Shown here: positions 29,175 to 48,687 of the stretch, in pieces
Layout of the letters: every line of letters starts with the position of its first letter
Position numbering within the stretch: the stretch's first letter is position 1
Assembly: GCA_018402665.1 (NCBI GenBank)
Contig: JAGYIN010000001.1
Location: forward strand, 62,001 to 126,000
Source of the DNA: Schleiferiaceae bacterium
Lineage (GTDB): Bacteria; Bacteroidota; Bacteroidia; Flavobacteriales; Schleiferiaceae
Direction: 5' to 3'
DNA length: 64,000 bases
Notes under the pieces: generated by a model
Told to the model about the DNA's origin: nothing
Seen by the model: only the letters and a program-made list of their open reading frames with translations
The model's database searches: none
Program-made: the position numbers and the translations under genes

Positions 29175-31205
29175 ATGAAAAAACTTTTACTCTCTTTTGC
29201 TACGCTCGCCTTTAGTCTCACGGCCAGTGCACAATACTACCACACAGCACCGGTGTCGGGATCTAACCCGAATAACGTGAATCAGGAAAACTCAGAATAT
29301 CCTGTGGGTAGCGGTCTTCCTACGGACTGGACGTCCATTTTAGGTGCTGCGCAGACTGCGGGGACGTATTCGAGCGTTCAGACGCTTCCCTTTACGTTTA
29401 AACTTCAAGGCTCTGCAATAGATTCTTTCCGTGTATCGAACACGGGTATTTTAACCTTTTCAAGAAAGGCAAACCCTGCAAATCATAGTGTGGGTTCGGC
29501 GGTAGCCATTACGAACTCCACCGTTCCGGATTCTTCAATTTGTATTTTGGGATTGAACGGTAGTGGATCAAACGACCAAGTCGCGCGCAAAACGTTTGGA
29601 ACGGCACCAAACCGCCAGGAATGGTTCCTATTCACCTCTTACAGCGTAACTGGAGCAGCGGGAAGTCACTGGAGCTACTGGTCTATCGTTTTGGAGGAAA
29701 CCACGAACAACATCTATATCGTGGATCAGCGCAATGCGGGGGTAACGCCTAGTTTTACCATAGGTGTACGTGTGAACAGTACGAATGTTTATGATCAAAT
29801 CAGCAGTGTAGGTAGTAATTCGACCAATGCGCCTGATTATTTAGACAACACGTACTACACCTTCATTCAAGGGGTGCAGCCGGATTATGAATTGGCAGGT
29901 GCCAGCTTAAACGTAAGCCCCTATTTAGGTCTTAACGTGGCTCCTTTTACCATTGCTGCAGACTTTACCAATAATGGTGCTCAGAATTTAACCAGCGCTA
30001 CATTTAACTATAGCGTGAATGGCTCTACGCCGATGACGTCGAGTTTATCGAGCATTAGTATTCCTAGTGGTTCCACAGGTATGCTTACTTCGGGAACGAC
30101 TTGGAACCCGTCAAGCACTGGATTGTACAACGTGAAAGCATGGTTGAGCGGTCTCAACGGAAGTAATGTTGATGCAAACACCGCAAACGATACCGTAAGT
30201 CTAGACATTCAGGTAGTGACTGCCTTAACTACACGCTACCCATTGTATGAGACCTTTACCTCTTCTACTTGTGGACCGTGTACACCGGCAAACGCAACCA
30301 TGGAAGCTGTTTTTGACGACAATCCAGGTGAACACAACTCCATAAAATACCAAATGAGCTGGCCAGGATCAGGCGATCCATACTACACTACTGAAGGTGG
30401 TGCGAGAAGAACGTTCTATGGCGTGAATTCTGTACCGCGTGTCGAGATTGACGGCGGATGGGATGGCAACGGTAATGGCGTAACACAAGCATTGTACGAT
30501 CAGTACCAAAACGTTCCTGCATTCGTTGAGATGAGTGCGACTTGGAGTCGTTTCACGAAAAGCATCGAAACCGAAGTAACCATTTCACCATTGGCGGACG
30601 TGACTTCGAACAACTTGAAGCTGTTTGCAGTGATTTATTCGCACCGCGATACGGCCAACGTTAAAACGAACGGAGAGACGGAATTCTTCAACGTTGTAAA
30701 GAAAATGCTGCCTAATGAAAATGGCGAGTCGTTGAGCGCATTGACTTCGGGCCAGAGTGTGACGAAAACGTTGAGCTACACGTTCAACGGTAATTACACG
30801 TTGCCTGCGAGTGCGCAAACCCCAGCGAACCTCAATACGCAACATACGGTCGAAGATTTCACCAATCTCGGTGTGATTCTTTGGGTTCAGGACATCGCTA
30901 CTAAAGAAGTATTGCAAAGTGTTGATGCGACCTACACTATAGGCCAATTCGAAGAATCACTTGCAAGTAAAATTAATGTATACCCTAACCCAACAAACGG
31001 CGACTTCTTTGTCGAAGGAAATTTCGAAGCAGCAGCAACATTGAAGTTGATGGATATGACAGGACGCACGCTTTACCAAGAGCAAGCAGATTTCACCGGT
31101 GGTCAGAAGGTTCAAATTTCCACGGAAGGTTTTGCCGCTGGAACGTACCTGTTGATCACAACGACAGAAGGTGCTTCTCATGCACAGCCTGTGATCGTGA
31201 AGTAA
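29175..31205 (+). CDS. Secreted Omp28-like protein with T9SS sorting domain
   Basis: The 676-residue protein has a signal peptide (KLLLSFATLAFSLTASAQ), a long beta-rich N-terminal half, an Omp28-like region with a thioredoxin-type CGPC motif (TFTSSTCGPCTPANATME, near residue 365), and a type A type IX secretion domain at the C-terminus (NVYPNPTNGDFFVEG; AAGTYLLITT). It should be exported by the T9SS and attached to the cell surface. The CGPC pair suggests a redox or disulfide role outside the cell, but this is untested. It is a single gene with a terminator after it. Confidence 0.9.
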   Translation: MKKLLLSFATLAFSLTASAQYYHTAPVSGSNPNNVNQENSEYPVGSGLPTDWTSILGAAQTAGTYSSVQTLPFTFKLQGSAIDSFRVSNTGILTFSRKANPANHSVGSAVAITNSTVPDSSICILGLNGSGSNDQVARKTFGTAPNRQEWFLFTSYSVTGAAGSHWSYWSIVLEETTNNIYIVDQRNAGVTPSFTIGVRVNSTNVYDQISSVGSNSTNAPDYLDNTYYTFIQGVQPDYELAGASLNVSPYLGLNVAPFTIAADFTNNGAQNLTSATFNYSVNGSTPMTSSLSSISIPSGSTGMLTSGTTWNPSSTGLYNVKAWLSGLNGSNVDANTANDTVSLDIQVVTALTTRYPLYETFTSSTCGPCTPANATMEAVFDDNPGEHNSIKYQMSWPGSGDPYYTTEGGARRTFYGVNSVPRVEIDGGWDGNGNGVTQALYDQYQNVPAFVEMSATWSRFTKSIETEVTISPLADVTSNNLKLFAVIYSHRDTANVKTNGETEFFNVVKKMLPNENGESLSALTSGQSVTKTLSYTFNGNYTLPASAQTPANLNTQHTVEDFTNLGVILWVQDIATKEVLQSVDATYTIGQFEESLASKINVYPNPTNGDFFVEGNFEAAATLKLMDMTGRTLYQEQADFTGGQKVQISTEGFAAGTYLLITTTEGASHAQPVIVK

Positions 31206-31238
31206 CCCGCTTTTTAAGCGTTTGAATATTGAGAAGCG

Positions 31239-31263
31239 GCCGAGAGGCGCCCCTCTCTTTATA
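31239..31263 (+). terminator. Probable terminator of the Omp28-like gene
   Basis: GAGAGG and CCTCTC form a 6-bp stem around CGCC and are followed by TTTAT. A second small hairpin (CGCTT/AAGCG) precedes it. The T run is short. Confidence 0.5.
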
Positions 31264-31280
31264 AACTATTTTTGCGCTCT

Positions 31281-32703
31281 ATGGCAGAAAGAGAAACCGC
31301 ATGGCGAACCTTGAGCAAGTGCAGCTCACGGATATAGGAAATAAAGGAAAAGCGGTGAGTAGACACGGCGAAAAGTTGTGTTTGTAAGCGGCGGGGTTCG
31401 GCGATGTCGTCGAGGTGCCAGGTGACAAAGAAGCGCCGAAACTACCTTGAGGGCAAGGTGGTGAAGGTAGATGTATTCAGTCCCACGATCGTGTGGAACC
31501 ACAGTGCGATTACTTTGGGTATGTGGCGGTTGCAAATGGCAGAATTTGAGCTATGAAAAGCAACTGGGCTACAAGGAAAAAAGTGCGCGAGAATTTGCGC
31601 AAAATTAGTCACGTCGTTCCAGGAAGGTTCCATCCCATACTTGGTAGCGAAGGAATACCGCTATAGAAATAAATTAAATTCAGTTTTACCGATAATAAAT
31701 GGCTGACCCAAGAGCAACTGGACAGTGGCGTGGATTTTCCCGAGCGCCGCGGTGCAGGATTTCACATTCCAGGTTTTTGGGATAAGGTCTTAGACATTGA
31801 TGAATGTTTGCTCTGAGTGAACCGTCTAATGCGATACGTAACTTTGTGCGCGATTGGGCCATCGAAAAAGACATGCCGTTTTTCAATGCACGCAGTCAAG
31901 AAGGTTGGTTGAGAACGTTGATGATTCGTGTTGCCAGCACCGGTGAGGTTTTAGTGGTGATTCAGTTCAAAGAAGAACATGCGGAGGCGCGCGAGGCGTT
32001 GCTGAAGGAATTGGACGAGAAATTCCCTGAAATCACAACCCTACAATACGTGATCAATACGAAACAAAACGACACCATCTACGACCAAGATATTATTACC
32101 TACAGCGGCCCTGGGTTTATTGAAGAAGCCATGCCGAAGTACAGTGGCGCGGGTGAATTGCGTTTTAAAATTGGTCCCAAGAGTTTTTACCAAACCAACC
32201 CTGAACAGGCCTACGAACTGTATAAGGTGGCACTGGATATGGCTGAGATTAAGAACGATGAGCTCGTGTTCGATTTATATACAGGTACAGGTACCATTGC
32301 ACTTTTCATGGCGGAGCAGGCACGCGAGGTGGTTGGTATAGAATTGATTCCTGAAGCCATTGAAGATGCGAAACTCAACGCCGCAAACAACCGTGTTGAA
32401 AATGCAACGTTCTACGCCGGGGATATGAAAGAGGTCTTTACTGCTGAATTCATTGCAAAACACGGGAAGCCGGATGTGTTGATCACGGACCCTCCGCGCG
32501 ACGGAATGCACGGCGATGTAGTTGCCTTACTTTTGGAATTAGAGATTCCTAGAATGGTCTATGTAAGTTGTAATTCCGCGACGCAGGCCCGCGATTTGGG
32601 TTTGTTGGCGGAGAAATACGAGGTCAAGCAAAGTCGTGCTGTGGATATGTTCCCGCAAACACATCATATAGAAAACGTTGTCCAATTGGTGCTAAAAGCC
32701 TAA
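31281..32703 (+). pseudogene. rlmD: 23S rRNA (uracil-1939) methyltransferase RlmD-like, 5' part frameshifted
   Basis: The stretch 31804-32703 is an intact frame with the C-terminal RlmD region, including the SAM site VFDLYTGTGTIALF, TDPPRDGMH and the catalytic YVSCNSATQARD. The missing N-terminal third lies in front of it in mixed frames: pieces matching the TRAM domain (GNKGKAVSRHGEK), a PQCDYFG segment that precedes the CGGC cluster motif, and YRNKLEFSF / ERRGAGFHIPGFWDKVLDID can be read by allowing about ten single-base indels between 31281 and 31808. Codon-level conservation between breaks is high, so sequencing error is as likely as decay. An ATG at 31281 and a TATTTTTG -7-like element at 31267-31274 fit a normal gene start. 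Confidence 0.85.
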
Positions 32704-34076: not shown

Positions 34077-34114
34077 CTTAAGTTTTCTACAGGTCATTGC
34101 GTAGTTTTGCTGCA

Positions 34115-35044
34115 ATGAATGACCAACCCCAACCCAACACATCACAGGAACGCGCATCACTGCAAGTTCCTGCCGTTATGCGTCGCACAGCGCAAACCAC
34201 ACAACGCATTAGCACGGCGCTTGCCGCAAAGATTGCCTGGCGTTGGTTCCTCACACCTTACCCCTTTAAAATACCGAAACGTGAACGTCCCATGGAGGAA
34301 CGCTTCGGCGCTCCTGAGCACTTCACCCATCCCCGCGGCCTCACCTACCCGGTCTATACCTTAGGCACAGGCGCCAAACGTGTGCTTTCGTCCACGGCTG
34401 GGGCGGTAGATTCACTCAATTCACTGCCCTGCTCGACCACTGCGAAGCTCAAAACCCAAATTTCCTAGAAGAATACACCCTCATAGGGTTCAATGCCCTG
34501 CACACCGCGGCGCTTTCGGGGGTAAACGCACGATGATGCCCGAATTTGGCGAATGCATTCAGCAGATACACAGACGCTACGGTACATTCCACAGCATCAT
34601 CGCCCACAGTCTAGGTTGCAATGCAGCACTCTACGCACAAATGGAATGCGGCACCACGGCCGATCACCAAATCCTGATCGCCCCACCAGAGGACTGATCT
34701 CGGGCATGGTCGGACTCTTGCGGCGCAGTAAGGCTTCAATAAAAAGTCACAGCCGCATGATCTCCAACCTCAAAAAAATCCACGGTAAGGGACTTTGACG
34801 GCTACAGTGCCCTGGCCTCGCTGCCCGCAACACCATCCCTGCGCTCGTCTTCCATGATCTCAACGACAACGACACTCCCATCGCCATGGGACGCTCCGTT
34901 GGCGAGCAGCTCACCCAAGGCACCTTCATTGAAACCAAGGACTAGGACACCGCCGCATCCTCCGCGATCCACGAAGTCCTCCAGCAGATCTACCAGTTCC
35001 TCTTCACTGTAACCCTGAAGACATACCGCACCTGTTTGCGTTAA
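34115..35044 (+). pseudogene. Alpha/beta hydrolase, broken by several frameshifts
   Basis: Starting at ATG 34115 (MNDQPQPNTSQERASLQVPA) a reading frame of about 90 clean codons is followed by frame changes near 34384, 34510, 34690, 34740, 34790 and 34945. Joining the pieces gives an alpha/beta hydrolase of about 300 residues: oxyanion region VHGWGGRFTQF, nucleophile elbow IIAHSLGCNAALYAQ, FHDLNDNDTP with the acid, and a GLGHRRIL block with the His. The substrate is unknown. As with rlmD, the codons between breaks look well kept, so either recent loss or a poor consensus may explain this. Confidence 0.75.
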
Positions 35045-35052
35045 TCTCCTAC

Positions 35053-35520: not shown

Positions 35521-35641
35521 GACGAAGAGGGAAAAGGGAGAGTAAGTTTCTCAATGCCAGCGGGTTAAAAGACCACAAAATGCTGGCACCACCCACCCTG
35601 TAAAAAAATCGCCCCAATCCCAGCTTTTCACCAAAATCCAG

Positions 35642-35671
35642 TTGCAGAAATAGAATAAGAGTCTATATTTG
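35642..35671 (+). promoter_or_regulatory. Promoter of tRNA-Val
   Basis: TTG at 35642-35644, a 19-base spacer and TATATTTG at 35664-35671 match the Bacteroidota promoter consensus with the same spacing as the tRNA-Lys promoter. Confidence 0.78.
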
Positions 35672-35682
35672 CACCCGCTCGA

Positions 35683-35755
35683 GAACGATGCGCTCAGTTA
35701 GTTGAGCACCTGCCTTACAAGCAGGGGTCAGGGGGTTCGAATCCCTCATCGCCCA
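35683..35755 (+). tRNA. tRNA-Val (anticodon TAC), acceptor stem imperfect
   Basis: The D arm (GCTC/GAGC), anticodon arm (CCTGC-CTTACAA-GCAGG) and T arm (GGGGG-TTCGAAT-CCCTC) are normal and the anticodon is TAC. The 3' acceptor strand is ATCGCCC, but the 5' strand reads GAACGAT, which leaves two A-C mismatches where GGGCGAT is expected, and the usual T8 is G. The gene has a good promoter and a terminator, so the defects may be sequence errors. Confidence 0.8.
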
Positions 35756-35770
35756 CAACTAAAAAGAGAA

Positions 35771-35807
35771 AGAAAGCCATCCACGAAAGAAAGTGGAGTG
35801 GCTTTTT
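35771..35807 (+). terminator. Terminator after tRNA-Val
   Basis: AAAGCCATCCAC and GTGGAGTGGCTTT pair with one bulged base around GAAAGAAA and are followed by TTTT. Confidence 0.75.
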
Positions 35808-35940
35808 CGTTACGACATCGAGCAGAAGTTTACTTCAGCGAGACTGGCGGAAATGAAAAAAGCTAAACGCTGCGGAGCAGCGGATGCTTCTTTCTCTTTA
35901 GTTGAATACAAAGAACTTTTGATGAAGGGTTCTTTCGCCG

Positions 35941-36948
35941 CTAGGCAGAAAATCCCATGTAACTTAGTATTTCTGCTTTTGGAATCACACAGAACGCCGC
36001 CGCGGATCGGACGTATCATTTTCTCGTCTTGGAATTAAATGCATATGACAATGCATTACTGTCTGTCCTGCGTCTAATCCATCATTGGTACCAATATTTG
36101 AAACCTGTTATATTGCTATCACCTACCATTAACTGTTCTCTAACCTGTTTCATTAACCTGTTGATGGCATTAAGTTACGCTGAAATAATAATTCAAAATA
36201 ACTTTTCACATGTCTTTTTTAGGAACAATGGCTTGTGTCATGCATGGCTTTGGGAACTTATCATAAAATGCTTTAGCTAATTCATTTTCCCCTAGAACTT
36301 CACTTTGATCACAAAATATACATTGACCATATTCAACATAGTCTTCAGCAAGTCCTCTCAAATCTATATCCGAACGATTTCCCTTATTCGTATTGCACTT
36401 ATAATAACAAAGCGCTTGATAATTATCTAAACTATCGGGGCCGCCTGGACTTTTTGGGACAATATGATCAACCTCTAAAGCCCTAAGCTGAAGCATCAAT
36501 ACCACAGAGTTCACATTTATGGTGAGCATTCACTAAGACCTTATAACGGGTGCTTTACGGAACAGGTCTCCTTGTATTACGACGATGGTCCCCGAGATAT
36601 CGATATTTCTTCTTTCAATAAATTCAGATATTTTTCTCCACAGAGATCCTTTAACTCCTCAATTTGCATCTTCATTATATATTGCCAAGAGCAATTCAAA
36701 GCTTTGTCTATCGGATAGGGGTCTTGATGTAATTTTATTTTTTGTTAAGACCTTGCCTACCATATTTTCACACGCTCTTCATAGTATTCAGCATTGCTTC
36801 ATCATAACCAGCAATTTCACGTGCAATGTCATGGATTGAAGCCTTACCGCCCTTATCTAATAAGGTCCAAATCGCGACAGGCTGATAAATATGCGACATA
36901 CGCATATCCGAATTAATAGATTCTCTTAAATCTTTCAATTTTAATGGC
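35941..36948 (-). pseudogene. Winged-helix/HNH nuclease/HIT-domain fusion protein, frameshifted
   Basis: Joining frames on the minus strand gives a protein of about 330 residues. The N-terminal part (LRESINSDMRMSHIYQPVAI, then a helix-turn-helix-like KASIHDIAREIAGYDE) is followed by an HNH nuclease domain (NAHHKCELCGIDAS, RALEVDHIVPKSPGG, QALCY and KCNTNKGN) and a C-terminal HIT domain (GQCIFCDQSEVLGENELAK, then GQTVMHCHMHLIPRREND, which holds the histidine triad). It ends with EILSYMGFSA and TAG at 35941. HIT domains hydrolyse or transfer nucleotides; HNH cuts DNA. The start is unclear; TTG at 36948 is possible, 3 bases from the upstream gene's stop. I infer a part in the neighbouring restriction-type system. 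Confidence 0.75.
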
Positions 36949-36950
36949 TA

Positions 36951-37333
36951 GAATCAAAATCTATTTCATTATTCTCATTAACCTCAATCGGTGGTACAGT
37001 ACCACTGTGATATTACGAGCATTTCGCAAAATTCAGGTCCATTAGAATTTAAAAACCTCCAACTTCCTCGGGAATATCTGTAGCTTAATTCCCCGGACGC
37101 CACCCCATCGACGCTGAAGTAAAATATATCTCCCTGTCGCGGTTGAAATGGGAAATCAAAGGGCGAATCTCGTTCAAGTATTAGTAATATATCAATTGGA
37201 TCATAGTTTTCTATCAAAAATGCTCCGGAGGGTGCAAACGATCAACAATATTATTATTAGGCTTACTTTTTCTATTCCTCTTCTTTTCAAAACCCAAGTC
37301 TAACGCTTCCCTTCCAAAGAACATCCAGGACAT
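36951..37333 (-). pseudogene. Small unknown protein upstream of the HNH-HIT gene
   Basis: A frame from ATG 37333 (MSWMFFGREALDLGFEKKRN) runs with one or two frame changes through DPIDILLILERDSPFDFPF and GDIFYFSVDGVASGE to GTVPPIEVNENNEIDFDSSH and a TAA at 36951. The product would be about 127 residues, acidic at its C-terminus. I do not recognise it. Its stop lies next to the possible start of the HNH-HIT gene, so the two were probably translated together. Confidence 0.5.
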
Positions 37334-37894
37334 TTGCAAAATATAAGTTTAGTTGATGACAAACACATAGTTGTTAGTTTGATCCAATATTATAAAGTTA
37401 TAAATGTAGCCAAATAGCTTATTAATCTTAAGCCGCATTTGACCAATTCGAGTCACTCATTAAACCCGCATTGTAGCGAAATCTTTCCAATCAAGTTCTA
37501 GTTTAATCCAGAAACTGTTTGCGATGCGTTGAACCAATTCCAACAATGATTCGACACTCTCATAATAAGTTTCCACGAGTCAAAGAATGTGAGGATAAGA
37601 CTTAATAACATCTACCAAATCTACTTAACTCAATTTGTCTTTTGGCATAAACCCAATAAAGGCTAACGGCCTATATCGCTGACAAGATTTAATGAACTAA
37701 AGTGAAACGTGGAAACCGAGACATTACGATATGAATTTAACTTTGCATCCTGTTTGCCCAAAATTCTTTTATAGAATTTGTAACGACCAAAAATCTACTT
37801 CAAACTACAATAGGTTTAAAAAGTATTTCACTTAACAACCGAAGCTTACTATTGGAATCAGTCTTTCAATTTCATAGGTTTAATGTTATAAGAG
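37334..37894. other. 560 bases with no secure gene
   Basis: This AT-rich stretch separates the minus-strand unknown gene from the plus-strand methyltransferase. Short open pieces on the minus strand (for example DLVDVIKSYPHIL and ESVESLLELVQRIA) hint at a degraded small gene, perhaps a regulator, but no continuous frame or family motif can be assembled with confidence. The divergent promoters should lie here. Confidence 0.4.
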
Positions 37895-39173
37895 ATGGAG
37901 ACAATGACAGCTTCCGAAAGAATAACAATAGGCACTACCTTTAGTGGTATTGGAGCACCTGAGAGCGTTAAAACTTAATCTCAAACCTGAGAGTACTTTT
38001 CGCTTGTGACATTGATAAGCACATAAAGATGCCTATCTCGCTAATAACGATTTGGACGAAAGGAACTTCTTCGATGACATTACCAAATGGTGTTTTATAC
38101 TCACTTCAGATAAACTTGACGATATCTACGTAGGTGGTAGTCCCTGCCAAAGCTACTCTGCCCACGACCTTATGGTGGGACTAAATGATGATAGAGGTAA
38201 CTTATTCAAACATTACATAAAATTATCGAACAGTCTTTCCCCCAAATATTTTATATGGGAGAAAATGTTAGTAGCGTTTTGACAAACAGGAAAGAGTTGG
38301 AAAGTGATTCAAAATGAATTCTCGAACCTACGTAAGGTTCTAAAAATCAGGTGTGCAATCCAATATATTATCATTAACTCCAGCGAAATAAGTTTCCTCA
38401 AAATAGGTCAAGACTCTTCGTTATCGGCTCTCGAAAAGATAACGACCGTACCCTCAATATTTAGGAAGCCCCAATTGGCGAACTCAACAAAACTGCTGTA
38501 GAACTATTAGATACGGATTTAAAAGTATATTAAAATATTATCCCGCGATAAAAAGACAAAAAGCTTGAATTCGTGACAGTCCAAAATGTGATAAAAACGG
38601 ATATACGAGAATACATAATACTATGTCCCTCATGAAAACAATGGAATTTTGCTTGTCAAACTGCAAGACAAAATTACAAATTGGCATGGAAACTTTGTCT
38701 ATCACCCACTCGAGTACAAAGAAAGGAAGCATTCAGCCCGAGTGAGGTCTTTGCGAATAGATTCGTTTCCACAACTCAATGGAATGAATACATGAAGCTC
38801 CGGCCAAAAAATAGGAACATATTTCTAAATACTATAAGGAAATGAAAGCTGATGAAGCCACAATGAGCCTTTCTTTACCGTTTCTATCCGAGTGACTCCA
38901 TAGAACATGGTATCAATAATTACCAAACGGTTTGCCGTTATCTATTTATTAAACGTCGAGGAAAATAAAATTTGGACCTCACGGTATTATAAGACCTACC
39001 TCTCCTAGAGAAAATTTAAGACTAATGGGATTCAGTGATTCGTTTTAAAATTGTTACATCCGGATAACCAAGCGTACAAACAAGCTGAAACAGTATGGTG
39101 GTTGACGTAATCAGCTCATCTGTTTGACAATTATTCACAAAACAAACTTTCGTCCAAAAAGTTAGTGTTATGA
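37895..39173 (+). pseudogene. DNA (cytosine-5-)-methyltransferase, frameshifted
   Basis: The product starts METMTASERITIGTTFSGIG with motif I (SAM binding), and then, across several frame changes, shows motif IV GGSPCQSYSAH with the catalytic Cys, a WEN block (motif VI, broken in the run of A at about 38263), the FPQNRSRLFVIGSRK region (motif VIII) and, near the end, LRLMGFSDSF (motif IX region) and AYKQAGNSMVVDVIS (motif X). It ends SKKLVL and TGA at 39173. These are the motifs of m5C methylases, here about 420 residues. In the island it would protect host DNA from the neighbouring nuclease functions. The variable recognition region is the most scrambled part. Confidence 0.85.
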
Positions 39174-39210
39174 CTAATATCGTCTAAGTCGAGGAGGAGA
39201 TGTTTTCAAT

Positions 39211-40279
39211 TTAAATAGTTTTAATACGCAACACATCTCCATAATCGCCCTTTACGCAAAAATCACCACTAAACACTTCACTTTGTTCGAAGTAATAACC
39301 ATGAGCCTCAAATCCCCCGTCCTTTACAGCCGAACGTAAAGTTGAGCAACATCTTTCGAACTAGCTAAATACTCCCCATCGGTTATGAGTTCGATGGTAG
39401 ATGCGTTTTCTTTTTCACCGAGAAGAATTGATAACATTTAAATATTCTTTTATTGGTCGATCATTTCTTGTATAATCTGAATTTATTAAAGGTCAAAAAC
39501 TCGCTTGCCTCCATAGCCGCAACTACCTTAATACTTAACCAAGAAGATAGATCCTTAAATAAGGACCTTAAATCCGATATGTTAAATTATTATACGGCAT
39601 AAACCAATAAGCACCTAACATATATTCGATTTGCGGCCCATTTTCTTTCGATCAATCCAATCGCAAAATCATTATTCTTAGCAAATAATTTACATAGTCA
39701 TACCTCATCACTCGCGCTGTATGCAGGGTACAATACCACCATAAACAGGCAGCAGAATTCCTTTTTTAGTATTTTGAGCGGTACCTTCATGAAAAACCTG
39801 CTAACAATGGCTTTGCTCGAAATATCTTTTGATGATACTTGATCATTTATTCCCCATCTAGCAGCAGTATATTTTCTAAATGAATCATTTAATAGCACCA
39901 AACTTGTCCAAAGATCAGGTCATTTGCTTGATGGGCTGGAATCCTCAGACAATCTATATAACATCTTAGAATTGAAAATGTCACTTTCCTCCTGACTTGA
40001 GTTGAATTGTTGCCTGGGACCATGAAAGAAGTCTTAGTAAAAACATCCCACTCTAGAGAAGGTTTATATTGCACTGAATCTCCTTCCATTACAAAAAGAA
40101 CTGTAATGCTCAACAGTTACAACCTTGTGGATAGACTCTTTAGGAGAACTGTAACAAAGGTCTAATAGCTCATCGTATTTCTTGTTCGTCAAATTCTCAT
40201 AAATCATTTTAATTACTTCTTCTTGAATATTTATCAGATTAAATCTTTGCTTGGCTTGAGCATTTATAGGATTACTCAT
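39211..40279 (-). pseudogene. Unrecognised protein A of the defence operon, frameshifted
   Basis: The gene starts at ATG 40279 (MSNPINAQAKQRFNLINIQE) and can be followed through frame changes to a TAA at 39211 (...GDYGDVLRIKTI), about 350 residues. Readable blocks include EVIKMIYENLTNKKYDELL, SLEWDVFTKTSFMVPGNNS, FRKYTAARWGIND, PQIEYMLGAYWFMPYNNLT and GGFEAHGYYFEQSEVF. No membrane segments or signal peptide. I cannot name the family. It is the last gene of the minus-strand operon and is convergent with the methyltransferase, only 37 bases away. Confidence 0.6.
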
Positions 40280-40300
40280 TTATTCCAGTTGTTTCTATTT

Positions 40301-41235
40301 TCATTTGTAAATATGAACCACTTTAGCTCTCAAGATTCGAATACTGACCGTTAGCCCTATAATCTAAGACTAAAGACATGGCCCGAACAAGAGCAGGATA
40401 AACATATAAAGCGAAATCAGGTTACCATTTCCTTTAATATCGAGGATATGATTCAAATGAGTACTTTGGAATTTTAACCAAAATCTTATTCATATCTAAA
40501 TCAAAGAATAGTTTTCTGAATTTAGATCTAATCTTATTATTGAGGCTACCGACCTTTCTCTTTCATGCGCCAACCAATAACGAAAAAGACACAACTCTCC
40601 TAAAAGAGATTTGCGGGCAAATTCACAGACGGTAAATGCGTGTCTATATGGTTGAAATTAATATCTACTATTTTTGAAGGTGTAAACCAATACACTCACA
40701 TCCAATCGTGTAGCTATATCCTTTTTATTAATTTCAATTTCAGACGGACAACCACAATGTATATCTTTTAAGATTTCATAGTAGGCCATAGAACTTTGAA
40801 CTAATACTGCAAAACGAATATTTTCTTGACTTTCATGGTATCTAAGCTCAGCGGCTATTGATTTTTAGCAATCCCACTACTCAGGCTTATTCGCAAAATC
40901 AAGGCATCTTCATCAATTGATAAATCATCTATGAAGATCATTATTGTAATCGAGGGCAATTAATGGGTATGGATACATAGTTTTATTTTACAATTTTCCA
41001 TTGAGTTAACAAAAGTATCACCTAACGATATTAAAACTGGCCTTTCTGTTGAATCAGCATTCACAATCAATGTTTACCCGTCTCTATGAAATTCAATTCC
41101 ATCACTTCCGCTAAACTCTAAAATTAAGTTCTGCCCGTTGCACTAAACTTTGTCTCCACAATAAATAGTTCCCTTTTCCAAGCTGGCAAAGCTAAATTTA
41201 TATGTTGTTTGTTTAGTTCCTATAATATTTGACAT
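40301..41235 (-). pseudogene. Unrecognised protein B of the defence operon, frameshifted
   Basis: The gene starts at ATG 41235, four bases after the GHKL gene's stop (MSNIIGTKQTTYKFSFASLE), and runs over frame changes to about 40301, roughly 310 residues. The N-terminal part is beta-rich (GIEFHRDG, STERPVLISLGDTFVNSM) and the C-terminal part is helical (YHESQENIRFAVLVQSSMA; GELCLFRYWLAHERERS). I see no catalytic motif that I can name. Its position between the ATPase and protein A makes it a likely working part of the system. Confidence 0.6.
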
Positions 41236-41239
41236 TGGT

Positions 41240-42980
41240 CTATCCGCTTTCTTTGATGAATCTTGGATTAGGGCCTACTTGGCCTTTACCGGATCCATTC
41301 TTAAGTTGACGTGATCCACGGCTATTACCACTACCACTACCACTACCACTTTGTTCGACACCATTGATTACAAGAGCTGTTTTAACTAATTCCCACCTCC
41401 TTTAGGTACTCCATAAATACCACCTTCTTTTGAGGTACTTAGCCCGCTGCTATCCCACGACAATTATGTGATTTACCAAAATTTCAGTTTGGGAATTACC
41501 CTCTTTAATACTATCCCCTGCCATGTAAATCAAGAAAAGCTTTGGAATTAGCCTTTGAAAATCAAATAATTCCTCATGAAGTTGAATCTCATTTTTTTCA
41601 GAAAGTCGATCTTTTTAATAGATTTTTAAGCCATTTATCATGACTAAAAGTTTCGAAATTGGAATATGATTGACTCAACTTAGGAGATACATCATGTACA
41701 ATACTAACGGGCGAATAAAAGAGTTAGCAAAGCCTTTCAGAAAAAATAAACATCCCATTTCGATAATGGTAAATAATTATTTCTTGCAATAGAAATATAC
41801 GGAAAGAAATTTAATTTTGTATGCTCGAAATATTCTTTCCAGGAAGCAGGTAGTCTTCTAAACCTAGATAATCAGGTATGCCTTATTTCCTTTAATTGAA
41901 TCGTATAAATGCGAGCTTAATCGTTTTGTAAGCATTAGCAACTTTATTTCAATATGCTCTAGATCCGATTTTGCGCCTTAAGTTTCAAATGAGGCAGAGA
42001 TAGTTTTGAGTCTTTTCCAGAATAAAAGCTATAAACTCTTCTTTATCCTTACTTTGAATCAAAAGTGAAGTCTTGTTCCCCGACCCATCATAAACTTTAA
42101 TTTAGCAATAGATTATTGTTGTAGAATGGGAATGAAATAGTAGCTGTATAAGTATAGTTCAATGAGTATTTCTAACTCTGTGAAGTTCCGCTCAAATCCC
42201 AAGTATTGTTTGAGTAAGTCCACATCGATTAGATGGATGGCAAAAGGTGTTGCTCCACCGTCACCTTGAATTATTTTTAGACGCATAGTTGATGCCATTC
42301 TCTGTGTGTCCACCAAGCTTCGGACTCCACCAAAATATAATCCTTCGTCCGAAGCGGTGTCATAGAGGACAGTATTAGGCTGCAGCCAAAACCGTCAGCA
42401 TTTTTACCTATTCCAAAAGAACCACGTGATCCACTTTTCGATTTTACACACTTTGACTATCGGCTGAACACGGGCTTCCCAGGGCAAACATCATTTCATT
42501 TGTTTCTTACTTAAACCTACCGTATTCAATCTGTTAACTTCAAATAATTAATGTTTTTGAGGAAAAACACTTTGACATTACTTCCAGAAAGCCCCAGGCC
42601 AAGCCTTTATGATTATACTTTTTTGAATTATTGAAAATCGCTTTAAGATTACCCCAGTCGGGAACCTTCTCAACTCCTATTTTTCACGGTTCAAAAATCA
42701 CTTCTACCGGATTGCTTTCATCTTTCGCAGCATCTAATGAATTCTGCACTAACTCACGGGCAAAAACTTCAACGATACTCACTTTAGAAGTAAATTCAAC
42801 TAACGCGGCATCATTGGAAACCGTCTCTAGCAGTAGTTTTTGAACTAGACCACTTATCGATTGATTTTTATAAGGTAAGTCATTAAGATCTATTGTATAC
42901 TTCACGTCAATTATTCGTTCGAGCGAATTCGAATCTCTATCTTGTCGGAAGTTCCATGGATTTATAAACTCTTTGCTCAT
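41240..42980 (-). pseudogene. MutL/MORC-like GHKL ATPase, frameshifted
   Basis: The gene starts at ATG 42980 (MSKEFINPWNFRQDRDSNSL). The N box ELVQNSLDAAKDESNP is at about residue 85, and the lid motif GSRGSFGIGKNADGFG follows in another frame near 42400, together marking a GHKL ATPase fold of the MutL/MORC type. Later blocks are in several frames. The end carries a low-complexity linker (EQSGSGSGSGNSRGSRQLKN) before KESG and TAG at 41240, about 580 residues in all. In such systems the ATPase is thought to clamp or remodel DNA for the helicase and nuclease. It starts 14 bases after the PD-(D/E)XK stop. Confidence 0.8.
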
Positions 42981-42994
42981 TCAACTTGAAATAT

Positions 42995-43719
42995 TTACGA
43001 TACAAAAGGCGGTAAATCATCGAATATTAAACCAAGCTCAATTAAGTTGCTTGTTCCAATATTCCTTTCATCGTTAGAGTTTAACCGAGATAAAATAACA
43101 TTCCCTAAATCCTCTAAATTGAAACTACCTTCTTCTCCCATTTCGCAAGCAGATAAACTATTAACCAAAGATTGATTTTGTCATACGCCAATTGCTCAAA
43201 GCTACTAATATTAATGGGCTTACTATTAATATTTTCTACCGATTTTACTCAATTTGTATATCGTCTGGAGCAAAGTCTACCGACTCACCTTGGGCTCCAA
43301 TCCAACCGTAAACTGATTTTCTTAGGTCTAGAAGTTGACACAGCACTTTCAATTCGCCAATCAAACCTTTTAACTTACTTTCATTAAAGGCAGAACCTTT
43401 TGTAAATGCTTGGAATTGAGATATAGCTGTATTTCTAATCTTGAATTCTCACATTTGCATTAGTAATCAGCTTTTTATCTATAATATCTAATAATTTCAA
43501 CAAAGACATAGTAGATATCGAATCATCGTTAAGCTGAATAGAAACAAAGTTCTCCTTTGTGCCATTCACCTCAATAGTTTGGTTGAATAACTTAATTCCA
43601 CCAAAAACTTAGGACCCCTAATCAGCTCACGCGACTCATATAGATAAACTATATCGTCGTATCCACCTAGCCTCTAATTTAATCATGCCATAGATCTGTG
43701 TTTTGTTAATTATTTCCAT
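42995..43719 (-). pseudogene. PD-(D/E)XK nuclease (DUF4420-like), frameshifted
   Basis: The gene starts at ATG 43719 (MEIINKTQIYGMIKLEA), overlapping the end of the Z1 gene by 10 bases, and ends DDLPPFVS and TAA at 42995, about 240 residues. The core reads KGLIGELKVLCQLLDLRK, YGWIGAQGESVDFAPDD and QIE, followed after a one-base deletion by VKSVENIN, giving the E...D...ExK nuclease pattern. The break falls exactly within the ExK motif. A small PD-(D/E)XK protein of this kind is a usual partner of Z1 helicases and would supply DNA cleavage. Confidence 0.78.
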
Positions 43720-46152
43720 TTGTGAAAATTTGTTTGATAATATGAGTTAGTGCCGGATATTTTGGGAAACGTATTGAGAAACCGACTATTACGTCGAGAA
43801 TTGAATACCTTATTATCCTGAGTTTCTATGTAGTATAAAACCAATCTTGGTATTCCATCATTTTCTTGATGCGTTTGTGGCAGATACGTAATCACCTTTG
43901 CTTTATAACAATCTAAAGCATTTACATACTTCATGCTGCGTCACTTAGCGGCATAATATTAGAATCTCAATATTGTATGTGCCTTCACTGTTAAACTATG
44001 GTGTTACATCCATTTTAGTTTCTTTAAATTCGAAACTTTGTTTTGAACTACTTTTATGTTATCTGCTACAACCTTATTTTCGACACCACTATATGAATAA
44101 CTCGATATAAATACTTGAATTCTAACACCAGTAGTTGAGTAGTCATGCTTAGATCTTGAGACATTTACAGTATTTGACAATGCTAATCCTTGGGCTAACG
44201 TCAAATTTATTTCGTTACTAGTATTGGTAAAGTAAAGGGTTTGATAACATTCCATTAACCTTGAAACATCTAAAGCCGCCCCATCCTTCTGTTGGCATCA
44301 TTGATTGATGAGCCAATATGGCTGGCGCTATATCATTTTGGTGTCTTAGTTGGATCAATTGAATAACTTTCAATAACATCTCGTAATTGACTATTAACTT
44401 CAACAAGAAATTTAAATTTATCATAAATATCTCTAGTAGTGTGTATTCTAATGAGATCATCATAACCTTTTACGCTAACCAAACCAACGCCCCATTTGAA
44501 GTAGCAGATCATAATTAGATGAATCGCTGGAAATAATATGAAGTGGTTAATCCTTCAATAGTTAAACCTCGACTAATAATATCACCACCGACGCATATTA
44601 AGAAGGGATAATCTTTAGTTCCGTAGTCTAATGTATCTCCGTTTCCATTGATCTCCAAGTTCAGTGACTTAATACATTCATCATACAAATTATTAAAATC
44701 ATCGTTTTGATATAACCTATTCTCAATGTCTAAGTATTCGAACCAGAATTTCATCTACATTTAAAACTTCAATATAATCCCGCACTTTATTGTAAACAAC
44801 TCGTTGATCAAAGACGAGCCTGCTCATGAATAATCATTGATCAAGGATCTTTATCAAATCTCGAAAATCCTCATCATCCAACTCTCGCTTAGAATTTCGA
44901 TTCGTCTTGCTACAAATTGTTTCTTGGTTTCGCGCTTTGGTAAAGAGGCTCTAAATCCCTGGAAGATATCTAAATCACTTTTTGCAACTCCTTGATAAAC
45001 CTTAGCACTTATCGACCGCTGAAAAACTCTTCGTCACCCATATAGTTTTTCGGCTTAGGCGGGCTTATAATAAAATCGCTAGGGTATAAACTTGTAGGTG
45101 CATCCCTATCCATGAATACATTTGCAAATGGGGTTGCTGTGTATCTACGTAACTACATTGTTTAAACAATGAGTACAACCTGTAGACTTCCCTATGAACA
45201 CTACTTACGTCTTCTGCGTTTGCAACTTGTCTAGCGCTATTAGGGATTGCCTCGAATCGCACTCATCATCTGTTATTAAACACCGTAACGGCACTTTTCG
45301 GATTCGTCCGCATCTTGACTTAACCATTCGTTTAGCTTATTCATCACCCCGTATCTACTCTGCCTTGTTGCATGCTTCTTTACAATTAGAAATAAAAAAG
45401 AATTATTTCTTTTGAAAGGGTAATAATACCATCATGTTGATCCTCGGGTCTAAAATCTAATCGACTAGTTAGTGATTTGGAGCATTTGGCAAAACCAGGA
45501 TGAGTTCGGTGAATTGGACACATGTAGTCATCTAATTCTTCCTGCGATTCTTCCCAATTCTGGCGTATCTTGAAAATAAAGTAGAACCTATTAAATCTCG
45601 ATTAACCCTCCTTTAGTCTTGTTCTCTTAGGGCGTATTATTTGAAGTTAAAATGATTACAACTCTATACCCTACGTCTATGGCCTTTGATGCAAGTCCAA
45701 CATAATTTTGCTGTTTTACTTTATTTGAACATGGCCTAGTACTAATCCTTTCCTAGCATCCTCGTCTAAATGCTCTAAATGAATGCGATTAAAAATTTTA
45801 TCAACGGAAGCTTCGATGGTATTAGAAGCGTCATAACCAATTCTCTTAGCTACGTTATTTAAGTATTTATTGTAACGTGGCAATAAATGTCTATTTATGG
45901 GTACAATAAACTTCTTGACCTTCCCCAACAATCCAGAAGCCCCATTTCAACTAGGTCCCCGATTTAATTCTCTTTCAAAACGAATGAGAGCAGCTCTTAC
46001 TAATTCTTCTTTGTAATAAGGACAACTATATTGAATAATGACCTCTTGAACAAATCGACTCCAAGTCTTCCCGAGTCAACTTTGAAGGAATTAGATTGTT
46101 GTAATAAAAATGATTTAACATATAAATGAGGATCTGCTACTTCTATTTCCAT
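43710..46152 (-). pseudogene. Z1-domain superfamily-2 helicase, frameshifted
   Basis: The start is ATG 46152 (MEIEVADPHLYVKSFLLQQS). The Walker A block reads LGHVQ, then after an indel GKTANYVGLASKA (near 45720); motif II is LITDDECD; TATPFANVFMDR follows near 45150; and the Z1 signature FLICVGGDIISRGLTIEGL is intact near 44590, followed in another frame by LLQMGRWFGYR. The whole gene would code for about 810 residues. Z1 proteins are SF2-type ATPases found in restriction and phage-defence loci. The gene overlaps the WYL gene upstream and the nuclease gene downstream by about 10 bases each. Confidence 0.85.
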
Positions 46153-47060
46153 TTTGTTTTATTAATTCGTTCTCCAACTTCTTGTTCTTGATAACCCTAT
46201 TTTGACCTTAAACTCCTCATCAGGTTTTCGAGCTATGATGAAGAGCTTAGTCTTAACATAAAGGGTAGGTCTCGGGAATTAATTGTATTTCTATTTCTTC
46301 TATCTCTCCATCCATTGGGCGGCTTACGCCCACAATTGAATCGGTATTCTTCTGCATCAAGGTGATGTCTTTAGGTAGGTCCGTATCTAATATAGCAAGG
46401 TTGTCTATACGGTCAAAAGCATTGACGAAGACAAAGCCGTCTTTTTCTAGTAGTGCCACCACAAACCATTTTTGTTGTTGTATTGCTTGAGATAAACAGG
46501 ATTAGTCACGAAAGTTCTAGACTCCCCACCAAACGGCGTATACGTCATTTGAACCTGCTTCCGTTCACTCACCGCTCTATACAGTGGAGCCAAGTATTCT
46601 TTACCCTTGTATGGATTACCGCCCAGTCTATGATCTTAGATTGCTTTGGGTTTGTACCATATCCATGTCACTTTGAAAAACGACGATGAGATCTTCGAGG
46701 CCTTGAAACTGAGGCAACCCTTCAAGAGCATCTGATTGCATCTAGCGCCATCTTAAGTTCCTCAACTTGCGTTTGATTTGGGAGATTATTTATCGAGAAT
46801 TTCGGTTATCATACCGATAATAGCGCTTCTTACCTTCAGCTGGATAGGTCTCAATAGGTGTTTCCCAACCGTTAGAGCTCTTCATAAGCAATATCATCCT
46901 GAAGCTGCCTGCTGCTGATGCCTTTCGACTGTGGATCTTTATCAACATCCACTCATTCATCGCCCACATCAAACCGTCAAACGTATAATTCCGTCCGGTG
47001 TTAGAAGCTTACGTCCAGGATGCTGTAGCGGCGTTTTAAAGGAGTCGTTTGGTGGTTGGC
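46143..47060 (-). pseudogene. WYL-domain transcriptional regulator, frameshifted
   Basis: Pieces in three frames build a regulator of about 300 residues. The N-terminal winged-helix region is scrambled near 46930-47060 (LKRRYSILDVSF; TGRNYTFD), followed by WETPIETYPAEGKKRYYRY, SERKQVQMTYTPFGGESRTF and WFVVALLEKDGFVFVNAFDR, which are the WYL domain blocks. The end overlaps the Z1 start by about 10 bases. WYL regulators such as BrxR/CapW-type proteins often sit at the head of phage-defence operons and repress them until infection, so this one probably controlled the Z1-nuclease-ATPase operon. Confidence 0.8.
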
Positions 47061-47149
47061 ATAACTTATTGTGGATAAGTTACAACTATTCACTAATGGT
47101 ATGCAGAACAAGAGCATAAAATATATTTTGACGTTGAGAATATCTTTAT

Positions 47150-47580
47150 AGTTTCACTTCTTGTTCCATAGGACCATTATTTTGATTAATAACTGGTACA
47201 AATGTCCTTCTGCAACATATAGATTACTGATTCGACAACCTTGTCACCACCTTCTTTGGTGGGTACGATAATATTTATGGTCTAGATCCTTAGGGCAACG
47301 CTTCTTGAGAGAATCATTCTGACACTGGTTTCAAGCAAGGTAAATTCAAACTCCTCACAATAGCTATATACAGCTAACGTATAAGGCAAGCTGAAGCTCA
47401 ACATAATCAAGGAAACTGCCTTCACGGGTATTAAATTCTGCGGCGGCCTGCTCCTAAAAATCTAATTCCATCGCCGAAGCAAATTCGAGGTCATCAACAA
47501 CTCTTCCATATGTTGTAATCCACCATAAACGACTCTCACAAAATGCAATCAAACCTCACGTATCATAATGTATATCAAAC
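47150..47580 (-). pseudogene. Remnant of an unknown gene
   Basis: On the minus strand the pieces VDDLEFASAMELDF, EQAAAEFNTREGSFLDYVEL and QLALYVSCI read well but no start, stop or family can be fixed. It lies upstream of the WYL gene and may be the last recognisable gene at this end of the island. Confidence 0.35.
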
Positions 47581-47651
47581 ACTTGACACATTGATCAATC
47601 GACACTGATAAAACTGCTTGAAAACGTGGCGAAAACGCCCTAGGTTTTTAT

Positions 47652-47681
47652 AAAAAGAGGCTCGGAGAGCCTCTTTTTTTC
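47652..47681. terminator. Hairpin terminator
   Basis: GAGGCTC and GAGCCTC pair perfectly around GGA, with an A run on the left and a T run on the right, so it can stop transcription in both directions. It marks the border between the defence operon region and the next remnant gene. Confidence 0.8.
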
Positions 47682-47689
47682 TAGTATAT

Positions 47690-48278
47690 GGAGAAAACCT
47701 CCTGGACCAACGACCCCTTCTCTCCCTCCTCCATCAACTCTATATATGGATAGTCCCCAGCTAACGTTCGGATAATGTAGAATCTTCCAATGATGGCGAT
47801 ATACATTGACGTCATTTTAGGAAAATCACCTATGCCTGCAATACCAAACTGTGTTCAATAAAGCAATTATTTCCCACTCTTGTGGAAACATGACTTGAGA
47901 CAGGCTTTTAGACAGACCTACAACCTCTAATAATGGACGGCAATACTCTGTCTTAGAAGAAAATGTAAATTCATATCTCTTCCATTTATCGTGGTTTTCA
48001 ACTCTTTTTCCAAAAAGCACTTTTCACTTTGATGTTGAGGATTTCCGACATTGCTACTCTACCTCAAAATCCATTTTCGCAGTAAAACTTGCCGTCTTCC
48101 ATCTGCTTGAAGTATTGAATGTTCCACTCCAAAGGATTTCATCACTTGCAGAGTCAATACTCCCTAATCCTGTCGGAAAATTCCCCTTAAGATCCCCACG
48201 CGGTTTTTGTACGCATAGGCCAAAAACATTAATGCCTCCACGTCTTGATGTAAAGATTGCCGCTAGTGTTCTTTTCAT
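47690..48278 (-). pseudogene. Unknown small protein gene, frameshifted
   Basis: The frame from 48278 (MKRTLAAIFTSRRGGINVFG) runs for 74 codons to a stop, and a second frame 48020-47826 (LFGKRVENHDKWKRYEFTFS; SKTEYCRPLLEVVGLSKSLS) continues it. Joined, they give a protein of about 170-190 residues without signal peptide or membrane segments. I do not recognise the family. The bidirectional hairpin at 47652-47681 follows it. This is the rightmost gene with frame breaks in the window. Confidence 0.4.
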
Positions 48279-48687
48279 TCTCCTTCTATTTTAAATTTAT
48301 AGTCATTTTTACTGGCGCTTCTAGCACTTGTATTCTCCTCTCAACGCACAAAAAAAGAAAAAGCGCGACCGCTCGGCACGACAGCTTATCTTGTTTTAAA
48401 CTGGCTTCTTAGTTACCCATAGAGCGAAAACACAAAGGCATCATCATCTTTTCAGTGGCTTCCTTTTTTAATTTTCGCTATGAATACCCTAAAGATCTAG
48501 ACACCTGCACAAAGCGACAACCTTGCCAGGCCGCCAAACCATCGTGAAGTGGAATGGTTAGCCAATACTTTGTTGGACTATTGCGATGATTAAATCTAAA
48601 AATCTGATAACCAGTAGTTTCGGGGTAAAAAAAAGCATTTTAAAGCATTATAATTTGATTTAGATTTAACCAACTAAAACATCCACT
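48279..48687. other. Intergenic stretch of about 400 bases
   Basis: No gene is evident. Between 48490 and 48600 short codon-like runs (for example DLDTCTKRQPCQAA) may be the tail of another broken gene. The right part should hold the promoter of the DUF805 gene; TATAATTTG at 48649-48657 resembles the -7 element. Confidence 0.4.

What the first reader, a model, noticed from the sequence alone, without database searches (positions are those of the whole stretch)
35941..47060. Frameshifted MORC/GHKL-Z1-nuclease-methylase defence locus
Assembling frames by eye gives a full set of parts: WYL regulator, Z1 helicase (GGDIISRGLTIEGL), PD-(D/E)XK nuclease, GHKL ATPase (ELVQNSLDAA; GSRGSFGIGK), two unknown proteins and an m5C methylase (GGSPCQSYS). 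The genes overlap or nearly touch. Restriction-modification systems with MutL/MORC-type ATPases were predicted by comparative genomics (Iyer, Abhiman and Aravind, 2008), so the frame is known, but this exact gene set including HNH-HIT and the two unknowns may not be described. The island is AT-rich compared with its flanks.
Basis: partly seen in the sequence, partly recalled or inferred. Interest (0 to 1): 0.8.

Follow-up and report, generated by a model that had tools for sequence, protein, structure and literature searches.

The report
Misassembled bacterial anti-phage restriction island
A DNA-defence gene cluster of a known kind sits in a strain-variable stretch of a bacterial draft genome, and the many broken reading frames that made it look like a ruin are most likely errors in the assembled sequence, because ordinary housekeeping genes beside it are broken in the same way.

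Summary
The parts are real: searches on separate frames confirm WYL, Z1 helicase, DUF4420 (PD-(D/E)XK), a GHKL ATPase, an m5C methylase, HNH and HIT. The GHKL is PADLOC's PDC-M33A. The two 'unknowns' lie where PDC-M33B and PDC-M33C lie; C is supported, B only weakly. A-B-C recurs widely: in 81 loci with A, B follows within two genes in 79, C within three in 77, and a methylase is close in 54. Together with Z1, DUF4420 and a methylase, and without a MutL-type GHKL on the stretch seen, it recurs in two other Bacteroidota genomes. Iyer 2008 and Miller 2022 describe this class: new member of a known kind.

The frameshifts are best explained as local assembly error. Host genes outside the island (rlmD-like 5' part, hydrolase, msrB) carry 35 small indels, the rlmD-like 3' part and two neighbours none. 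Four same-genus genomes looked at have these genes intact where they span them, and the broken parts keep the third-position substitution pattern of working genes. No reads were available. The mechanism (ATP clamp licensing helicase-nuclease cleavage of unmethylated DNA) is inferred.

The parts
31200..32703 (+). host rlmD-like rRNA methyltransferase (name by eye); its 5' part to about 31815 carries 12 small indels against G635, its 3' part none
   Evidence: ORFs of 479-501 aa in the four same-genus genomes listed
34097..35040 (+). host alpha/beta-hydrolase-like gene (name by eye), broken by 11 small indels; 304-321 aa in L048, L049, L031, inside a 370 aa ORF in L052
35053..35540 (+). host msrB-like gene (name by eye), broken by 12 small indels; 162-171 aa in L048, L031, L052; cut by the contig end in L049
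35683..35756 (+). tRNA-Val beside which the island lies
   Evidence: the stretch 35640-35988 aligns to G635 too
35990..48650 (.). strain-variable AT-rich island; same-genus G635 has about 1.3 kb here instead (L048 5110-6427, one 354 aa ORF)
35960..36950 (-). HNH followed by HIT domain, probably one fused protein (inferred; limits inferred)
   Evidence: PF01844 5.7e-9, PF01230 8.2e-6
37890..39100 (+). m5C DNA methylase, convergent with the operon (limits inferred)
   Evidence: 3.7e-9; pieces at profile 60-121 (1.6e-11), 164-183 (0.0017), 275-295 (0.042) in order
39200..40279 (-). C: PDC-M33C / DUF6339-like protein (3' limit inferred)
   Evidence: pieces E 8.7e-4 and 6.7e-3 in order; frameshift-tolerant 35.4 against 12.1 +- 1.6 for 20 shuffles. 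Against: no PADLOC hit, no Pfam DUF6339 match in the own genome, nothing with the smaller profile
40281..40978 (-). B: gene at the PDC-M33B position, weakly supported (limits inferred)
   Evidence: three pieces in order, E 0.4, 1.1 and 4.8; no PADLOC hit
40980..42980 (-). A: paraMORC2-like GHKL ATPase (PDC-M33A); 3' limit inferred
   Evidence: 5e-12; 5.7e-10 and 0.006
42990..43719 (-). DUF4420, PD-(D/E)XK nuclease (limits inferred)
43712..46160 (-). Z1 superfamily II helicase, MzaC-like (limits inferred)
46170..46950 (-). WYL-domain regulator (limits inferred)
   Evidence: 0.0058, below cut-off; 1.4e-4, over cut-off

Best explanation
A strain-variable island beside a tRNA-Val gene in a Flavobacteriales draft genome carries a restriction-modification-like anti-phage system: an m5C methylase marks host DNA; a paraMORC2 GHKL ATPase (A) with partners B and C acts as an ATP-driven DNA clamp or loop former that senses target sites; when a site lacks the mark, the clamp licenses the Z1 helicase and DUF4420 nuclease to move along and cut the DNA; a WYL protein regulates expression. 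The broken frames are most probably errors of the assembled sequence in this stretch (for example reads of a minority strain that were never polished), so the system is probably intact in the cell. Shown here: identity of Z1, DUF4420, A, C and methylase, the recurrence of the set, the intact host orthologues and the indel/substitution pattern. Inferred: clamp mechanism, licensing, cause of the errors, role of B and C.
For: Domain identities. Recurrence of A-B-C: B within two genes in 79 of 81, C within three in 77 of 81, methylase within three before or five after in 54 of 81; five of the 84 loci scanned supplied the profiles. A family of about 148 aa, Vsr by Pfam on one representative, in 18 loci, directly after C in 12 cases. 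Same set without MutL-type GHKL in L020 and L180. paraMORC2 mark ExxxH in 79 of 79 A proteins of 540-720 aa (mark defined in PMC2292703 section 5). Z1 motif in 7 of 7, as in Iyer's third operon type. Assembly error: 12, 11 and 12 indel events in rlmD 5' part, hydrolase and msrB, 0 in rlmD 3' part, pyrR-like and aroK; substitutions per site no higher in the broken parts (237 of 1783) than in the intact ones (262 of 1878), and biased to third positions in both (sums). Intact G414 against G635: same position pattern, no indel in rlmD, pyrR-like or hydrolase. Island: 27 frameshifts against 4 in-frame stops over 830 aligned codons of Z1, A, C and methylase.
Against: No reads or coverage were available; the assembly cause rests on pattern alone. 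B in the window is not significant by any piece, and PADLOC and Pfam find neither B nor C in the window. L020's B and C get no PADLOC or Pfam hit. L020 is a 9,995-base contig, so a MutL-type GHKL or AIPR could lie outside it. The frameshift counts come from my own aligner with chosen penalties. msrB shows 10 changes at 137 second positions, so some substitutions may be errors or decay. G553 against G635 shows one indel each in rlmD 5' part, pyrR-like and msrB. No activity data exist for any member found here.
Confidence: 0.65

Rival explanations
1. The island and the adjacent host genes are truly decaying pseudogenes in this lineage: a defence locus lost its use and accumulated frameshifts.
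For: The letters as given are broken throughout 34.1-48.6 kb; the rest of the 244 kb examined has only two other low-coding bins.
Against: One gene (rlmD-like) has 12 indels in its first 600 bases and none in the remaining 890, at a similar substitution rate (63 of 518 and 119 of 888 sites). Substitutions in the broken parts keep the third-position bias and are not more frequent than in intact neighbours, though in bacterial spontaneous mutation substitutions outnumber indels (recalled). The four same-genus copies listed are intact where they span the genes.
Confidence: 0.15
2. Two separate systems lie side by side: a methylase-A-B-C cassette (PDC-M33 with its methylase, convergent as in L061) and a Z1-DUF4420 pair that has lost its MutL-type GHKL and AIPR.
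For: A-B-C usually occurs without Z1 nearby: Z1 in 2 of 81 loci. In Bacillus L085 a MutL-Z1-DUF4420-AIPR set stands next to methylase-A-B-C. 19 of 23 DUF4420-Z1 loci have a MutL-type GHKL.
Against: L020 and L180 hold Z1, DUF4420, methylase and A-B-C without MutL-type GHKL or AIPR on the stretch seen, in different gene orders. L020 Z1 groups with L017 and L177, which show no AIPR on the stretch seen either.
Confidence: 0.3
3. A MzaABCDE system.
For: Z1 of the window and Z1 and DUF4420 of L020 match MzaC/MzaD.
Against: MzaC match far below the NCBIfam cut-off (31.2 against 1500 bits); no AIPR (MzaE) hit in the frames scanned; the GHKL belongs to PDC-M33A.
Confidence: 0.04

Closest known systems
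paraMORC2-type restriction-modification operons (Iyer, Abhiman and Aravind 2008, PMC2292703; abstract and sections 4-6 read)
   Same: GHKL ATPase with ExxxH mark (79 of 79 relatives), helicase with DThhQXuRhFG-like motif, RE-fold nuclease, cytosine methylase, Vsr in some relatives
   Different: B and C are not named in the sections read; the figure was not available
Putative defence system 'Type I' of Miller et al. 2022 (PMC9523054; section 11 and passages read)
   Same: core of Z1 protein, PD-(D/E)XK protein (printed there as DUF4220) and cytosine methyltransferase, plus three additional genes; AIPR is named there for Type II
   Different: identity of the three genes could not be checked (figure and supplements not held); no Vsr found in the window frames scanned, L020 or L180, though Type I is said to be associated with DNA repair endonucleases
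PDC-M33 (PADLOC-DB candidate, A-B-C)
   Same: A; C by my profile; gene order; B by position
   Different: a methylase is close in 54 of 81 loci and the window adds Z1 and DUF4420; whether PADLOC's definition includes a methylase was not checked
MzaABCDE
   Same: Z1 is MzaC-like; in L020 DUF4420 is MzaD-like
   Different: no AIPR found in the frames scanned, another GHKL family, low similarity
HEF_HK / Response_reg_2 pairs with C5 methylases and Vsr (PMC8011034, passages read)
   Same: another GHKL family tied by its authors to paraMORCs, next to C5 methylase and Vsr
   Different: other domains; not compared by sequence here

Membership tests
PDC-M33 module | A: GHKL ATPase of model PDLC04582 | tested here: met
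   E 5e-12 over model 19-95 of 627; 1.5e-12
PDC-M33 module | B: model PDLC04583 | tested here: inconclusive
   no PADLOC hit in window frames; three weak pieces in order with an 81-sequence profile
PDC-M33 module | C: PDC-M33C models / DUF6339 | tested here: inconclusive
   my 67-sequence profile: 8.7e-4 and 6.7e-3 in order, for me convincing; the library models themselves: no hit
Iyer paraMORC2 operon | ExxxH in the S5 domain | tested here: inconclusive
   79 of 79 relatives; in the window an ExxxH at about 41.66 kb in one fragment, placed by eye only
Iyer paraMORC2 operon | SFII helicase with DThhQXuRhFG motif | tested here: met
   7 of 7 intact Z1 proteins; window fragment 44546-44478 matches the Z1 profile at 579-594, E 2.4e-5, and reads DLLLQMGRWFG by eye, with L in place of T
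Iyer paraMORC2 operon | RE-fold nuclease and DNA methylase | tested here: met
   DUF4420 (below Pfam's cut-off), DNA_methylase
Miller 2022 Type I | Z1 + PD-(D/E)XK + cytosine methyltransferase core | tested here: met
Miller 2022 Type I | three particular additional genes | not testable with these tools
   figure and supplement not held
Miller 2022 Type I | association with DNA repair endonuclease | tested here: not met
   no Vsr in the window frames scanned, nor in L020 or L180; an association, not a strict requirement
MzaABCDE | AIPR protein (MzaE) | tested here: not met
   no AIPR hit in the frames scanned: minus 35.5-37.3, 39.0-47.0 and 47.0-49.1 kb, plus 37.2-39.7 kb
MzaABCDE | sigma factor MzaA and MutL-type MzaB | tested here: inconclusive
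   no such hit in those frames with Pfam, nor with PADLOC and NCBIfam on minus 39.0-47.0 kb; fragments could hide one

The most novel reading that the evidence does not exclude
The methylase-A-B-C cassette, with Vsr in some loci, is a self-sufficient restriction system whose cutting or killing part is unrecognised, probably in B or C: C is predicted with high confidence as a mostly helical fold with no solved counterpart found, and apart from the methylase and Vsr no neighbour family recurs in more than 7 of the 84 loci scanned. In the window, L020 and L180 this cassette has taken the place of the MutL-type GHKL (and AIPR) as partner of the Z1 helicase and DUF4420 nuclease: GHKL modules are exchangeable sensors on a common cutting engine.
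Probability: 0.35. Interest if true: 0.55.

Novelty: new member of a known kind. Interest (0 to 1): 0.3.

Why it matters
As a finding it is mainly a warning: dense frameshifts confined to a strain-variable stretch of a draft genome, running into housekeeping genes and stopping in mid-gene, point to assembly error rather than gene decay, and the codon-position test used here helps to separate the two without reads. The by-product is broader: the A-B-C module, often with a cytosine methylase, occurs in many phyla; for B and C no function was found in the searches made; and it can stand where a MutL-type ATPase usually stands beside Z1 and DUF4420. That makes the role of paraMORC ATPases in restriction testable by gene deletions in one cassette.

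Tried and rejected
The 98 aa GHKL fragment as single query found only the own copy in 296 genomes of a phylum sample and nothing in genome contigs, viral contigs or plasmids; a five-sequence profile was needed. That profile found no relative in viral contigs. P0001 against 395 genomes of the class: 2 matches, L025 and a weak partial one. P0001 against plasmids: one Rhizobium record at 23% over part of the query; P0006 against phages: one record at 26%. First five-sequence profiles for B and C: B and C not significant as fragments; frameshift-tolerant B 12.5 against 8.3 +- 0.9, C 9.8 against 9.6 +- 1.0; only the larger C profile was convincing; with it B scored 15.4 against 9.9 +- 0.8, but over 6 codons only. 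Solved-structure search with the A profile: one match at E 0.078, a flagellar protein, not believed. Foldseek for B (pLDDT 92.4, pTM 0.73): one match with E below 0.001, a cytokine-receptor chain with TM 0.25, taken as a generic beta-sandwich. Foldseek for C (pLDDT 94.6, pTM 0.90): best E 0.82. Z1 tree: the two A-B-C-associated rows do not form one clade, one origin not ruled out, several long branches. No exact direct repeat of 12 or more bases links the 600-base stretches at the two island edges. Papers holding DUF6339: 0; PDC-M33: 0; paraMORC: 7; passages of PMC12988326 on PDC-M systems do not name M33. Only these searches back the statement that no function of B, C or PDC-M33 is described in that library.
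Full report
What is there. Z1 reaches 2.2e-10 and 2.7e-6 in two pieces over the Pfam cut-off. DUF4420 reaches 2.8e-4 or 2.4e-5, below its curated cut-off, and 25.9 in a frameshift-tolerant alignment against 8.9 +- 1.0 for 20 shuffles. The GHKL piece is PADLOC PDC-M33A at 5e-12. The cytosine methylase reaches 3.7e-9 and lies on the + strand, convergent with the rest. HNH 5.7e-9 and HIT 8.2e-6 lie at about 36.5-36.0 kb. WYL is 0.0058 in one scan and 1.4e-4, over cut-off, in the own-genome search. GC is 34-36% in 2 kb windows from 36 to 46 kb and 44-52% beside the island. Pfam was run on minus frames of 35.5-37.3, 39.0-47.0 and 47.0-49.1 kb and plus frames of 37.2-39.7 kb only.

The broken frames. 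In the same genus, G635 (L048) is 86% identical over window 31.1-35.5 kb and 91% over 48.6-51.9 kb, and has about 1.3 kb in place of the island. Of 24 same-genus genomes beside the own one, 23 gave some match to the left flank; I fetched longer stretches of seven and listed the ORFs of four. In these four the rlmD-like gene is intact; the hydrolase is intact in G635, G414 and G553 and lies inside a 370 aa ORF in G453; msrB is intact in G635, G553 and G453 and cut by the contig end in G414. The gene names rest on my reading of the proteins. Against L048 the window has 12 indel events in the rlmD 5' part, 11 in the hydrolase and 12 in msrB, and none in the rlmD 3' part, the pyrR-like gene and aroK; right of the island DUF805 and SPFH have none and the 404 aa ORF one. 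Substitutions by codon position are 8/7/48, 32/12/84 and 8/10/28 in the broken parts and 13/2/104, 6/4/55 and 14/9/55 in the intact ones; in sum 237 of 1783 sites against 262 of 1878. Control: intact G414 against intact G635 gives 7/9/78 (rlmD 5'), 25/7/131 (rlmD 3') and 26/12/108 (hydrolase) with no indels; its msrB piece is cut by the contig end (35 sites per position, one indel). G553 against G635 gives no indels in rlmD 3' and hydrolase and one each in rlmD 5', the pyrR-like gene and msrB. So the broken parts look like working genes plus indels. Within the island, frameshift-tolerant alignment gave 15 frameshifts and 2 stops over 454 codons of Z1, and 5 and 2 over 165 (A), 4 and 0 over 110 (C), 3 and 0 over 101 (methylase); DUF4420 gave 1 and 0 over 65, and B aligned too poorly to count. 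In 244 kb of the contig, 26 of 478 overlapping 1 kb bins are poor in ORFs: 24 form one run over window 35.5-48.0 kb, one lies at window 15-16 kb, one just right of the window. A change from 12 indels to none inside one gene is hard to obtain by decay. I conclude that this stretch was assembled from poorer or fewer reads; no reads were available to prove it.

What the two unknowns are. DUF4420 was sought in 395 genomes of the order: 11 hits, 8 over the cut-off. One, G469 (L020, a whole contig of 9,995 bases), has GHKL-B-C-methylase-234 aa-Z1-DUF4420-148 aa in open frames; its GHKL is PDC-M33A at 2.1e-30, its B and C have no PADLOC or Pfam hit, and they were placed by position and by 34% and 36% identity to L027. 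The GHKL family PDC-M33A occurs in 4 of 395 genomes of the order, the own one included. The two genes after A in L061, L062 and L063 are PDC-M33B in 3 of 3 and PDC-M33C in 2 of 3, with Pfam DUF6339 in the same 2. Of 84 loci examined (these 80, of which L064 is the L061 record, plus L020, L027, L062, L063; five of the 84 supplied the profiles), 81 have an A of over 450 aa, 79 of 81 have B within the next two genes, 77 of 81 C within three, 54 of 81 a methylase within three genes before or five after, and 2 of 81 a Z1. The three without are L096 (A split in two), L109 and L139. Among other neighbours of 90 aa or more within four genes, the most frequent family, about 148 aa, is in 18 loci, directly after C in 12 cases; its representative is Vsr by Pfam (4.1e-25); no further family recurs in more than 7 loci. 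Neighbours were not annotated one by one. In the window, C is supported by pieces at 8.7e-4 and 6.7e-3 in order; B has three pieces in order, none significant.

Does the exact set recur? In 23 loci given to (8 from the order sample, 14 fetched from the phylum sample, plus L085; L023 and L024, fetched for DUF4420 hits below cut-off, were not given), 19 have a MutL-type GHKL, L085 among them with A-B-C as well; L020 and L180 have A, a gene at the B position, C, methylase, Z1 and DUF4420 and no MutL-type GHKL or AIPR on the stretch seen; L171 and L181 show neither by profile. L180 holds two such sets next to each other, the second with no assigned Z1 at the contig edge. L180's C genes match a C profile built without L180, its B-position genes do not match the B profile significantly. 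In a tree of 23 Z1 proteins the L020 and L180 rows do not group; one origin is not excluded, and several branches are long.

How it may work. Iyer and colleagues (sections 4-6 read) propose that such GHKL proteins loop DNA between the recognition site and the cutting site, with SFII helicases and RE-fold nucleases. The A proteins here carry ExxxH in 79 of 79, their paraMORC2 mark. VcSduA, a protein of the kind earlier called paraMORC3, needs both its ATPase and its nuclease residues for protection (PMC12137116, passages read); that supports ATP-gated cutting in general, not for this family. My reading is methylase self-marking, A-B-C as ATP clamp and sensor, Z1 and DUF4420 as engine and cutter. 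Only the gene content is shown; the order of events is inferred. C is predicted as a mostly helical protein with two short strands (pLDDT 94.6); the best Foldseek match has E 0.82. B is a beta-rich domain plus helices (pLDDT 92.4) with only generic matches. I see no known nuclease fold in either list.

Novelty. The class is described by Iyer 2008 and by Miller 2022 (section 11 and passages read), and the A-B-C module is in PADLOC. PADLOC's source paper and the Mza discovery paper were not read. Whether Miller's three extra Type I genes are A, B and C could not be checked. I file the locus as a new member of a known kind in a badly assembled stretch.

Host. The order is Flavobacteriales by inference: contig G388:C11, same order as the own genome, has the same length (7,089) as DUAO01000011.1, titled Flavobacteriales bacterium, whose A protein matches the L061 query at 100%. 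The genus was not named by any search.

Noticed in passing
window 31200-31815 and 34112-35505: Two separate patches of small indels in host genes, with a clean 2.3 kb between them; a sign of patchwise sequence quality.
   Followed up: yes
L048 5110-6427: The same-genus allele at the island site holds one 354 aa ORF, coiled-coil-like by eye, instead of the island, so the site is variable.
   Followed up: no
window 35960-36950: HNH and HIT domains follow each other closely and may be one fused protein; its link to the defence genes is untested.
   Followed up: partly
L180 (G094:C16): Two neighbouring sets of methylase, A, B-position gene, C and DUF4420, one with Z1 and one at the contig edge without an assigned Z1.
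   Followed up: partly
L062 8923-14332: A reverse transcriptase (PADLOC RT_VI, 3.9e-70) lies upstream of A-B-C.
   Followed up: no
L063 3758-5068: A PAPS-reductase-like protein (Pfam 0.0066, below cut-off; weak BrxP and SspD matches) directly follows A-B-C.
   Followed up: no
L027 5753-12877: A Vsr-like gene, a methylase and a second GHKL with a weak HSDR_N_2 C-terminal match precede A-B-C; no Z1 or DUF4420 by my profiles.
   Followed up: no
L020 5006-5710 and L021 3619-4257: Two similar-looking proteins of 234 and 212 aa sharing the start LxACEESQAV stand near the Z1 genes; the L020 one has no Pfam or PADLOC match.
   Followed up: no
window 47060-48650: About 1.6 kb of further unreadable island sequence beyond the WYL gene, with no family match in the minus-strand frames (best 0.3); plus-strand frames were not scanned.
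   Followed up: partly
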